Program-made: the position numbers and the translations under genes
Source of the DNA: Desulfotomaculaceae bacterium
Lineage (GTDB): Bacteria; Bacillota; Desulfotomaculia; Desulfotomaculales; Pelotomaculaceae
Assembly (NCBI GenBank): GCA_028696455.1
Contig: JAQVGZ010000002.1
Span: 1 to 64,000, forward strand
Direction of reading: 5' to 3'
Length of the DNA stretch: 64,000 nt
Notes under the pieces: model-generated
Databases searched by the model: none
What the model was told of the DNA's origin: nothing
What the model saw: the letters and a program-made list of their open reading frames with translations, nothing else
In this document: piece after piece, positions 28,565-31,574 of the stretch
How positions within the stretch are numbered: the first letter of the stretch is position 1
Layout: every line of letters begins with the position of its first letter

Positions 28565-29587
28565 ATGGTAGTCGTCATGAATTTGTCAGCTGGTCCGGAA
28601 CAAATTAACGCTGTTCAACAAAGGCTAGAACAATTTGGTTTTGACATTCATATTATCCGCGGGGTAAACCGTCTGGTTATAGGTGCGGTAGGGGATCGCC
28701 GGATAATCAGTTCTTTAGGTTTAGAAAACATGCCTGGGGTTGAAAGTATTATACCCATTATGAAGCCCTATAAATTGGTTAGCCGGGAGTCTAAAGGGAA
28801 AAGCAGTGTGATTAAGGTTAAAGACCTGGTTATCGGTGGTGATGAAGTAACCGTTATAGCGGGTCCTTGTGCGGTTGAAAGCAGAGAACAGTTGCTCACC
28901 GCTGCACGCCAAGTGCGTCGGGCAGGAGCCGTTATTCTCCGGGGTGGCGCCTTTAAGCCTAGAACTTCTCCATACAGCTTTCAGGGTTTGGAAGAGGAAG
29001 GTTTAAAATTACTGGCTGAAGCATCTGTTGAAACTGGTTTGGTTACGGTAACAGAAGTTATTGATGAAGTCAGCTTAGAACTAGCGATAAAATATGTTGA
29101 CATTGTTCAGATTGGGGCGCGGAATATGCAAAACTTTCACCTTTTAAGATCGGTGGGGCGCTCGGGTAAGCCAGTTTTGTTAAAGCGTGGCCTTTCGGCT
29201 ACCATTGAAGAATGGTTGATGGCAGCAGAATATATTTTTTCTGAAGGAAATGAATCAGTAATTCTTTGCGAGCGAGGTATTCGCACTTTTGAACGTGCTA
29301 CCCGTAATACGCTGGACCTAAGTGCTGTTCCTGTAGTTAAAAGGCTGAGCCATCTTCCAGTAATAGTGGATCCTAGTCACGCGACCGGAGACCTGCGACT
29401 TGTGGCGCCAATGGCTAGGGCGGCAGTTGCAGCCGGTGCTGACGGTCTACTTGTAGAAGCCCATCCTGAACCTCAGAAGGCACTTTGTGACGGTCCTCAA
29501 TCCTTGACTCCGGAAGAGTTTTACAATTTAATGGCATCATTGAGATTAGTGGCTGCCGTGGTTGGTCGGTATATTAGAGAAGTATAA
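28565..29587 (+). CDS. aroF: 3-deoxy-7-phosphoheptulonate (DAHP) synthase
   Basis: Condenses PEP and erythrose-4-phosphate, the first step to aromatic amino acids. The 340 residues have an N-terminal ferredoxin-like regulatory domain (about 1-75) and a KDO8P-synthase-like barrel, the type I-beta layout. The barrel shows VTVIAGPCAVESREQL near 99-114, LRGGAFKPRTSPYSFQG near 128-144, LLKRGLSATIEEWL and VDPSHATG. GGGAGG precedes the ATG. No other aromatic gene follows. The hairpin after it (29593-29613) lacks a T-tract on the plus strand. Confidence 0.96.
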   Translation: MVVVMNLSAGPEQINAVQQRLEQFGFDIHIIRGVNRLVIGAVGDRRIISSLGLENMPGVESIIPIMKPYKLVSRESKGKSSVIKVKDLVIGGDEVTVIAGPCAVESREQLLTAARQVRRAGAVILRGGAFKPRTSPYSFQGLEEEGLKLLAEASVETGLVTVTEVIDEVSLELAIKYVDIVQIGARNMQNFHLLRSVGRSGKPVLLKRGLSATIEEWLMAAEYIFSEGNESVILCERGIRTFERATRNTLDLSAVPVVKRLSHLPVIVDPSHATGDLRLVAPMARAAVAAGADGLLVEAHPEPQKALCDGPQSLTPEEFYNLMASLRLVAAVVGRYIREV

Positions 29588-29774: not shown

Positions 29775-29803
29775 TTGCACCTTTTTTTCTGATCAGTTAT
29801 AAT
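29775..29803 (+). promoter_or_regulatory. Promoter of the SCIFF gene
   Basis: TTGCAC (29775-29780), 17 bases, TATAAT (29798-29803). The stretch 29614-29774 before it is AT-rich with an ATAATAT/ATATTAT inverted repeat and no gene. Confidence 0.8.
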
Positions 29804-29818
29804 GTGGTTGGAAAGAAG

Positions 29819-29980
29819 GTGAGAGTTATTAGTAAGCATGTTAAAACATTAGGTAGCATCAGTCTTCCGGGTAATATTAAGGGTCGTGGCTGCGGAGAGT
29901 GCCAAAACTCATGCCAGTCTGCCTGTAAGACATCATGCACAGTAGGAAATCAGGTTTGTACAAAAGACGCTTTAAAGTAA
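29819..29980 (+). CDS. SCIFF peptide (six cysteines in forty-five residues), RiPP precursor
   Basis: A 53-residue peptide whose core GCGECQNSCQSACKTSCTVGN (25-45 without the first Gly) is the near-invariant SCIFF signature; a sixth Cys follows in QVC. SCIFF peptides are thioether-modified by a dedicated radical SAM maturase, normally the next gene. Here the gene stands alone with its own promoter and a strong terminator 6 bases after the stop. The start is doubtful: GTG 29819 is only 16 bases from the -10 box and abuts GAAAGAAG, whereas an ATT at 29828 has AAGGTGAG at a good distance. The peptide's role is unknown. Confidence 0.88.
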   Translation: MRVISKHVKTLGSISLPGNIKGRGCGECQNSCQSACKTSCTVGNQVCTKDALK

Positions 29981-29985
29981 AACAG

Positions 29986-30014
29986 ACCTTGTCCTTAGGG
30001 ATAAGGTTTTTTTT
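29986..30014 (+). terminator. Terminator after the SCIFF gene
   Basis: ACCTTGTCC (29986-29994) pairs with GGATAAGGT (29999-30007), one G-T pair, then eight T's. Confidence 0.92.
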
Positions 30015-30167
30015 CGCCTGACAGCCCTATCAGTTTGATATCTGTTAAGTTTCTTAATATGATAATCTTATTTGTTTTTATTGGTTATTAAGGCCGGTTT
30101 ACCAGTGCTTATAAAACATGATATACTTATTTGGCTTTAAAAAGAATTAACATTTTTTAGAGAGGAG

Positions 30168-31574
30168 ATGAACCCATTGCCGCAATTTGATGGAGGAATG
30201 CGGCGCCTCCCGGGGTTTGCCAAGTTGATAACGAGTTTTGACCAATGGTTTTCCAGACAGTCTACGTCCAGGCAAATTGGAATTGGTGTAGCTATATATC
30301 TGATTATATCAGTTATAGCGTATACTTTTTATGGAGATAACGCATGTGCAGTCGTAGTAGATGACAAGGTGATTGCTGTTGTAGACAATGAAAAAAACGC
30401 AAAAAGAACCCTGGGTGAGCTAGTTAAGTTCAAATCAGATCAGGTGGGTATGAATTTATTTATTAGTCAAAAAGTGTCCTATAAAAGTGTCCGGGTAGAA
30501 GAGGATGAAATCTTGGACCTAGAGTCTTTTAGAAGAATTTTGGGCGAAGCATTATCCCTCAATACTGAAGTCACTTCAATTGTAGTTAACGGGGAAAAGA
30601 AAATCTTTCTAAAAAATAATGATGCGGAAGAATTGCTTGAGTGGCTGGGGTCTATTTATTTGGGTGAGCCTGGTGAGCAAGTGGAATTTAAGGAAAAAGT
30701 TGAATTGGTCACTTGCTCTGCCAATATAGATGAACTAATTGATCTTGAGGGTGCAAAAAAACTGGTGCTGCACGGAACTGGCAAAAGCCAGCAGTATACG
30801 GTGAGAGAAGGAGATACAGCCTGGGATATTGCCGAGGTGTTTAAGATGAATCTTGAGCAGTTAAAGTCAGTTAATCCGGAATTGGATCTCGAACGGCTGA
30901 ATGCGGGACAGATATTAACAATATGTCAAGGTGTGCCACTAATTAACGTTATAGCAACCCGTCAGGAAACTGTAGTTGAAGAAATACCGTTTAAGGTTGA
31001 GGTAAAAGATGATGATAGCTTGTTTTCTGGTGAAAAAAAAGTAATTCGCGAGGGGGTTCCGGGACAAAGAATTGTAACCTATCAGATTACTAAAGAAAAC
31101 GGGCTGGAGATCAGTAGACAAGTGTGTGAGCAAAGCATAATTAGAGAACCTTTGGATGAAATAATATTTAAAGGCTCGCAGACAATGCTCGCTTCCCGTG
31201 GCGGGTCAACGCGAATGAACTGGCCATGTGCGGGCAGTGTAAGCTCGGCATTTGGTATGCGCGGGGGGAGAATGCACCAGGGGATCGATTTGAGCGCTGT
31301 CTACGGTAGCCCAGTTACTTCTTCTGCGGCAGGAAGGATAGCATTTGCGGGTTGGGAGGGCGGCTATGGGAAGATGGTGGAGGTCTCCCATGGCGGTGGT
31401 TTTGTAACGAGATATGCCCATCTCTCGTCTATTAGTGTAAGCACTGGCCAGCAGGTTGACCGGGGACAGTTAATCGGATTGGTTGGCGCAACCGGGCATG
31501 CAACCGGACCGCATTTGCATTTTGAGGTGTTAATAAATGGACGGCAGCACAACCCTATTAATTATTTGCCTTGA
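30168..31574 (+). CDS. M23 family metallopeptidase with LysM and G5 domains
   Basis: A membrane-anchored peptidoglycan endopeptidase of 468 residues. One helix near 38-55 (IGVAIYLIISVIAYTF) anchors it. A LysM domain (about 209-252, YTVREGDTAWDIAEVF), a G5 domain (about 258-335, with EEIPFKVEVKDD and VIREGVPGQR) and a C-terminal LytM/M23 domain follow. The zinc site is complete: MHQGIDLSAVYG and the late PHLHFEV. The family includes SpoIIQ-like and cell-separation enzymes; which role applies cannot be told. ATG 30168 follows GAGGAG. A terminator follows. Confidence 0.9.
   Translation: MNPLPQFDGGMRRLPGFAKLITSFDQWFSRQSTSRQIGIGVAIYLIISVIAYTFYGDNACAVVVDDKVIAVVDNEKNAKRTLGELVKFKSDQVGMNLFISQKVSYKSVRVEEDEILDLESFRRILGEALSLNTEVTSIVVNGEKKIFLKNNDAEELLEWLGSIYLGEPGEQVEFKEKVELVTCSANIDELIDLEGAKKLVLHGTGKSQQYTVREGDTAWDIAEVFKMNLEQLKSVNPELDLERLNAGQILTICQGVPLINVIATRQETVVEEIPFKVEVKDDDSLFSGEKKVIREGVPGQRIVTYQITKENGLEISRQVCEQSIIREPLDEIIFKGSQTMLASRGGSTRMNWPCAGSVSSAFGMRGGRMHQGIDLSAVYGSPVTSSAAGRIAFAGWEGGYGKMVEVSHGGGFVTRYAHLSSISVSTGQQVDRGQLIGLVGATGHATGPHLHFEVLINGRQHNPINYLP

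What the first reader, a model, noticed from the sequence alone, without database searches (positions are those of the whole stretch)
29819..29980. Orphan SCIFF peptide gene with its own promoter and terminator
The near-invariant SCIFF core with six Cys is present, but the radical SAM maturase normally beside it is not. The gene lies between aroF and an M23 peptidase. It has a TTGCAC-17-TATAAT promoter and an eight-T terminator, so it should be abundantly and independently expressed. The start codon is odd: the best-spaced start is ATT, and GTG 29819 is almost at the predicted transcript 5' end.
Basis: partly seen in the sequence, partly recalled or inferred. Interest (0 to 1): 0.6.

Follow-up and report, generated by a model that had tools for sequence, protein, structure and literature searches.

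The report
SCIFF peptide with unlinked maturase gene
A small six-cysteine peptide gene that looked like an orphan does have its modifying enzyme, but that enzyme sits elsewhere in the genome and belongs to a separate stand-alone branch of the family that has repeatedly replaced the usual neighbouring enzyme; the peptide gene also seems to start at a rare AUU codon.

Summary
The SCIFF gene is real: TIGR03973, 74.5 bits, the only copy in the genome. Its promoter, SD site and eight-T terminator are all there. It is not an orphan. A full-length SCIFF maturase (TIGR03974, 608 bits; CteB match E 1e-152; all cluster cysteines kept) lies on another contig (C68).

In related genomes of the same family the order is SCIFF–maturase–M23 peptidase. 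In the window's genus (3 of 3 species) and three other genera, SCIFF has stayed beside the M23 gene, the old maturase is gone, and the remaining maturase is elsewhere. These unlinked enzymes are only about 45% identical to the linked ones. They belong to a 34-member stand-alone clade (100/100 support in a reduced tree) across many Bacillota, none of it next to SCIFF. In 25 genomes the stand-alone enzyme is the only SCIFF maturase; 5 keep both.

The separate promoter and terminator are ancestral, also present where the maturase is adjacent, so they do not mark an orphan. The odd start is supported: all three species of the genus have ATT or ATA where relatives have TTG or ATG; infC of the same genome also starts at ATT. 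Chemistry and expression are inferred. New variant of a known kind.

The parts
29775..29803 (+). Promoter: -35 TTGCAC (29775-29780), 17-nt spacer, -10 TATAAT (29798-29803); predicted 5' end about 29810
   Evidence: TTGC-N17/18-TATAAT at the same place in all 24 genomes compared
29816..29822 (+). Shine-Dalgarno AAGGTGA, 5 nt before the ATT
   Evidence: Read from sequence; similar leader in relatives
29828..29980 (+). scfA (SCIFF precursor), 50 aa, MSKHVKTLGSISLPGNIKGRGCGECQNSCQSACKTSCTVGNQVCTKDALK, six Cys; start codon ATT (29828-29830), stop TAA (29978-29980)
   Evidence: TIGR03973 74.5 bits; start aligned with TTG/ATG of relatives; purifying selection
29984..30014 (+). Intrinsic terminator: stem 29984-30009 (CCTTGTCC..GGATAAGG core), T-run 30007-30014
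   Evidence: conserved in relatives
29981..30167 (+). Site where relatives carry the linked maturase; here only 187 bp including the terminator
   Evidence: Gene order in f1 genomes; gap length
30168..31574 (+). LysM-G5-M23 peptidase gene, the conserved downstream neighbour (context, not part of the system)
28565..29587 (+). DAHP synthase ('aroF'), upstream neighbour seen in this genus only (context)

Best explanation
This is a functional SCIFF (ranthipeptide) precursor gene whose maturase acts in trans. The ancestral layout of the bacterial family was scfA - maturase - M23 peptidase, with scfA already a separate transcription unit ending at its own terminator. A divergent stand-alone SCIFF maturase, related to enzymes of other Clostridia, entered the family. 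The linked copy was then lost from several genera, including the window's, while scfA stayed where it was. The peptide is transcribed alone from 29775-29803, ends at 29984-30014, and is most likely translated from AUU 29828 after an 18-nt leader. It is then modified by the C68 enzyme, presumably with a thioether from the fourth Cys (Cys33) to a nearby Thr, as in CteA. Shown by sequence: gene identity, unlinked maturase, displaced position, stand-alone clade, conserved promoter and terminator, absence of a canonical start at the conserved position. Inferred: that this enzyme modifies this peptide, the bond formed, the direction of transfer, and initiation at AUU.
For: One SCIFF and one maturase over cut-off in the genome. 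Full-length CteB match, E 1e-152; rSAM and SPASM cysteines invariant across linked and unlinked enzymes. In f1 the maturase is missing from the SCIFF-M23 interval in G000, G091, G092, G093, G101, G102, G104 and G105, and beside SCIFF in 13 other genomes of the family. Unlinked f1 enzymes form one clade, 100/100, apart from the f1 linked ones. The wider clade has 34 members, none adjacent to SCIFF (the 26 sampled: 100/100). In 25 genomes it is the only TIGR03974 enzyme, with a SCIFF elsewhere; in G425 they are 166 kb apart on one contig. SCIFF stays under purifying selection (NG86 dN 0.053, dS 0.534 for G000/G092). Start: of 159 SCIFF genes with a recognisable leader anchor, only the three of this genus and G088 lack a canonical start there (two further flagged rows are a start one codon earlier and a tandem precursor). 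infC of this genome has ATT as its only plausible start.
Against: No direct evidence links this enzyme to this peptide. Four stand-alone-maturase genomes have no detected SCIFF (G106, G107, G356, G461) and five keep a linked enzyme too, so the clade may have another or additional substrate. The genomes are mostly drafts (G000 96% complete). GTG 29819 is in frame at the same relative position in the three congeners, so an upstream GTG start is not strictly excluded.
Confidence: 0.8

Rival explanations
1. The stand-alone enzyme mainly modifies some other peptide or protein, and SCIFF in these genomes is unmodified or modified only as a side activity.
For: Four genomes have the stand-alone enzyme but no detected SCIFF; five keep a linked maturase as well. 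In G100, G101 and Fusibacter (G115) the enzyme sits among Nitro_FeMo-Co, ParA/ferredoxin and DUF134 genes.
Against: No conserved alternative small ORF was found beside the stand-alone enzymes. SCIFF is kept, with its core intact, in 25 genomes where this is the only family member, and is under purifying selection.
Confidence: 0.12
2. True orphan: the SCIFF gene lost its maturase and is a relic or works unmodified.
For: No maturase on the transcript or at this locus.
Against: Full-length maturase on C68, at a similar locus (between the lspA-like/rluD-like pair and a DUF896 gene) in the two other congeners; intact conserved core.
Confidence: 0.03
3. Translation starts at GTG 29819 (53 aa) rather than ATT 29828.
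For: GTG is a canonical start and is in frame at the same relative position in all three congeners.
Against: The GTG is part of the SD stretch in G000 and G092 and has 1-nt SD spacing in G091; it is about 10 nt from the predicted 5' end. In relatives with a TTG start read by eye (e.g. G105, G109) the matching GTG is out of frame with a stop between.
Confidence: 0.12
4. The unlinked maturase is a binning or assembly artefact.
For: The genome is a 167-contig draft with 2.8% contamination.
Against: The two congeners have orthologues at a similar locus, 78-83% identical; SCIFF lies 29.8 kb and the maturase 20 kb inside their contigs; G425 shows both genes on one contig.
Confidence: 0.02

Closest known systems
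SCIFF / ScfA (TIGR03973), e.g. CteA and Tte1186a
   Same: Leader K-H-[IV]-K-T, six Cys, CQxSCQSACKTSCTVxNQxC core; over the curated cut-off
   Different: Maturase unlinked; near-cognate AUU/AUA start in this genus; N in place of the usual T or A in CGECQNSC
SCIFF maturase ScfB (TIGR03974), CteB structure 5wgg/5why
   Same: Full-length match including the N-terminal region, rSAM and SPASM motifs, all cluster Cys
   Different: Separate clade never found next to scfA; A instead of G just before the Cys at position 342 (A in 92% of stand-alone, G in 100% of linked rows) and two other clade-marking positions, 129 and 208
Noncanonical starts of infC (ATT in E. coli) and sigR (GTC in Streptomyces)
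   Same: Near-cognate start behind a good SD; IF3 discriminates against such starts (PMC5472188); infC of this genome also appears to start at ATT
   Different: Here on a RiPP precursor gene; no regulation by IF3 has been shown

Membership tests
SCIFF precursor (TIGR03973) | Match over the curated cut-off of the family model | tested here: met
   74.5 bits against 50
SCIFF precursor (TIGR03973) | Six cysteines within 45 residues | tested here: met
   C22, C25, C29, C33, C37, C44 of the 50-aa product
SCIFF precursor (TIGR03973) | Maturase (TIGR03974) present in the same genome | tested here: met
   C68:20057-21388, 607.7 bits
SCIFF precursor (TIGR03973) | Maturase gene within about 500 bp (usual, used as a marker in PMC5300114, not strictly defining) | tested here: not met
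   On another contig; 187 bp to the M23 gene
SCIFF maturase (TIGR03974) | Match over the curated cut-off (425 bits) | tested here: met
   607.7 bits
SCIFF maturase (TIGR03974) | rSAM CxxxCxxC and SPASM-region cysteines | tested here: met
   C103, C107, C110 and C334, C342, C360, C398, C401, C407, C411, C430 invariant, aligned to CteB
Ranthipeptide | Thioether to a non-alpha carbon in the product | not testable with these tools
   Needs mass spectrometry/NMR; donor Cys and both candidate Thr are conserved
IF3-sensitive near-cognate start genes | Initiation at AUU/AUA in vivo, repressed by IF3 | not testable with these tools
   Only comparative support

The most novel reading that the evidence does not exclude
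The stand-alone maturases are a mobile, bifunctional lineage: they evolved for a second, still unknown substrate (perhaps tied to the Fe-S/FeMo-Co-like gene cluster they sit in in three genomes) and, wherever they arrive, also serve SCIFF well enough that the linked maturase is lost. In the window's genus, SCIFF dosage is in addition held down through an IF3-sensitive AUU/AUA start.
Probability: 0.15. Interest if true: 0.65.

Novelty: new variant of a known kind. Interest (0 to 1): 0.45.

Why it matters
SCIFF and its maturase are treated as an inseparable neighbouring pair, and maturase families have been built on that rule (PMC5300114). Here is a coherent stand-alone maturase clade that has displaced the linked enzyme in several lineages. 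Genome mining by adjacency misses these pairs, and the system offers a natural test of how a RiPP enzyme can be swapped while its substrate stays the same. The AUU/AUA start would also be missed or mis-set by gene finders. The function of SCIFF remains open; effects on sporulation genes and the agr quorum-sensing locus are reported for Clostridium beijerinckii (Chen et al. 2020, as reviewed in PMC8102284).

Tried and rejected
Orphan reading: rejected. Contig-break artefact: unlikely given the congeners' similar locus and G425. Alternative precursor beside the stand-alone maturases: small-ORF clustering gave mostly frames overlapping or antisense to the maturase or its neighbours, plus the genus-specific DUF896 gene. 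Leader differences between SCIFFs served by linked and unlinked enzymes: none obvious by eye. Rfam at the locus: nothing at the gathering score. The sigma-70 scan does not list the scfA promoter because TTGCAC matches only 3 of 6 -35 positions; comparison between species was used instead. No paper on unlinked SCIFF maturases turned up in the open library, but subscription papers, including the founding Haft and Basu 2011 study, could not be read. Structure prediction was not used, as CteB already covers residues 1-445.

Full report
WHAT IS THERE. The frame that runs through 29834-29962 matches the whole TIGR03973 model at 74.5 bits (cut-off 50), and it is the only SCIFF in the 2.69-Mb, 167-contig genome. 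It is flanked by a DAHP synthase (28565-29587) and a LysM-G5-M23 protein (30168-31574). The product from ATT 29828 is 50 residues with six cysteines.

NOT AN ORPHAN. The genome holds one maturase over the TIGR03974 cut-off, at C68:20057-21388, 607.7 bits. It aligns end to end with CteB (5wgg, E 1e-152). The three radical-SAM cysteines and the SPASM-region cysteines are invariant between it, its close relatives and linked maturases. The SCIFF gene is 29.8 kb from the contig start and at least 34 kb from the contig end, and the maturase lies 20 kb inside a 34.9-kb contig, so an assembly break between neighbours is not the explanation.

HOW THE PAIR CAME APART. 113 genomes of the order were searched with both models. 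Most have the two genes within a few hundred bases. In the window's family (f1) the common order is SCIFF > maturase > M23 > TPR > peptidase-MA-like > murA-like gene (TPR and peptidase-MA by Pfam, murA by reading the sequence). In all three species of the window's genus (G000, G091, G092) and in G093, G101, G102, G104 and G105, SCIFF still directly precedes the M23 gene and the maturase between them is missing. In the window the space left is 187 bp (29981-30167). Among f1 genomes with SCIFF located, 8 have the unlinked enzyme and no linked one, 1 (G100) has both, 12 have only the linked one, and 1 (G090, 84% complete) has neither. Species are related, so this is a pattern, not a set of independent events. 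In another family, G070 shows the reverse: the maturase stayed beside M23 and SCIFF moved.

A STAND-ALONE CLADE. The unlinked f1 enzymes are 67-83% identical to the window genome's enzyme, and the linked f1 enzymes only about 43-48%. The tree puts the eleven unlinked f1 enzymes in one clade (100/100) and the linked f1 enzymes in another (95/95). Wider scans found further members outside the family. In the 81-row tree 34 enzymes form one clade (SH-aLRT 99), and none has a SCIFF within the stretch examined (1.5 kb, or to the contig end, for most loci; longer for others). A careful tree with 26 of them gives 100/100; it places the clade among enzymes of other Clostridia, not with the order's own, which points to horizontal transfer into the window's family (direction inferred). 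A second, smaller group (L266, L268, L269, L275, with L279) is also not adjacent to SCIFF.

Five (G100, G115, G216, G548, G630) also keep a maturase beside SCIFF. Four (G106, G107, G356, G461) show no SCIFF. In G425 the two genes are on one contig about 166 kb apart. SCIFF in the unlinked genomes keeps its core: G000 and G092 differ by 9 synonymous and 5 non-synonymous codons over 41 codons, dN 0.053, dS 0.534.

PROMOTER AND TERMINATOR. TTGC-N17/18-TATAAT lies at the same place in all 24 genomes compared. A hairpin with a T-run follows the stop within about 70 nt in most of the order (57 of 78 distinct SCIFF genes) and in 69 of 92 genes outside it. Both are present where the maturase is adjacent. 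So scfA was already its own transcription unit before the split. That may have made the loss of the linked maturase easy, but it does not mark an orphan.

START CODON. GTG 29804 lies upstream of the predicted 5' end, and GTG 29819 lies about 10 nt from it and inside the SD stretch. ATT 29828 has AAGGTGA ending 5 nt before it. Of 161 SCIFF genes collected, 159 have a recognisable leader anchor; of these 153 have ATG (108), TTG (39) or GTG (6) within three codons upstream of it. Six do not: the three species of this genus (ATT, ATT, ATA at the aligned position), G088 (ATA; three congeners have ATG), one with ATG a codon further out, and one tandem precursor (start identities read). In infC of the window's genome ATT is likewise the only plausible start after the upstream stop, as in E. 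coli (PMC5472188). This is good comparative support for near-cognate initiation, not proof. For G088 an upstream GTG with 5-nt SD spacing is a fair alternative.

MECHANISM. Most likely the peptide is made from its own short mRNA and bound through its leader by the N-terminal part of the C68 enzyme, which then forms a Cys-Thr thioether of the CteA kind. For CteA/Tte1186a the donor is the fourth Cys and the acceptor Thr34 or Thr37 (PMC8326336, PMC8172795); both Thr and the Cys are present here (Cys33, Thr35, Thr38). What SCIFF does for the cell is not known here; in C. beijerinckii loss of the system lowered sporulation genes and raised agr (Chen et al. 2020, as reviewed in PMC8102284).

TAXON. 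No name is given by the tools. From memory, the contig lengths 3,025,375 (G094) and 4,545,624 (G034) equal the genome sizes of Pelotomaculum thermopropionicum and Desulfofarcimen acetoxidans, which would make f1 the Pelotomaculaceae; this is a lead, not a test.

VERDICT. Observation confirmed; orphan interpretation replaced by trans maturation by a stand-alone maturase clade; odd start supported.

Noticed in passing
window 29720-29588 (- strand): Perfect promoter TTGACA-16-TATAAT (29720-29693) followed about 80-100 nt later by a terminator hairpin (29613-29593): a candidate small RNA between scfA and the DAHP synthase gene. Promoter, a CU-rich stretch (CCTCTCCTT) and terminator look conserved in G091 and G092; no Rfam family.
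   Followed up: partly
window 29984-30014 and relatives: The scfA terminator keeps recognisable stem sequences across the order (CCTTRTCC..GGRYRAGG; CCTGATCCC..GGGATGAGG; CCCGATCC..GGATTGGG), more conserved than a plain terminator should need. The f1 pattern occurs at one place only in the 64-kb window.
   Followed up: partly
L072, L071, L247: In G100, G101 and Fusibacter (G115) the stand-alone maturase lies among Nitro_FeMo-Co, ParA/ferredoxin ATPase and DUF134 genes (DUF5320 by Pfam in G115 only), resembling an orange-protein type cluster (the cluster name is from memory).
   Followed up: partly
L067:7374-9028, L073-L077: In the window's genus a DUF896 gene with a Cys-containing tail (CDCENC/CGCETC) directly follows the unlinked maturase; a SpoIIP gene is near it in G000 and next to it in genus g9.
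   Followed up: partly
L147: A precursor with two SCIFF cores in one frame upstream of the maturase.
   Followed up: no
L242, L246: Diverged SCIFF cores in stand-alone-maturase genomes: CGECKNSC (G113) and CGNCANSC (G117).
   Followed up: no
G106, G107, G356, G461: Stand-alone maturase present but no SCIFF found at E 0.1; loss, assembly gap or another substrate.
   Followed up: partly
L054, L079 (G070): In G070 SCIFF has moved away while the maturase stayed beside the M23 gene, the reverse of the window's case.
   Followed up: no
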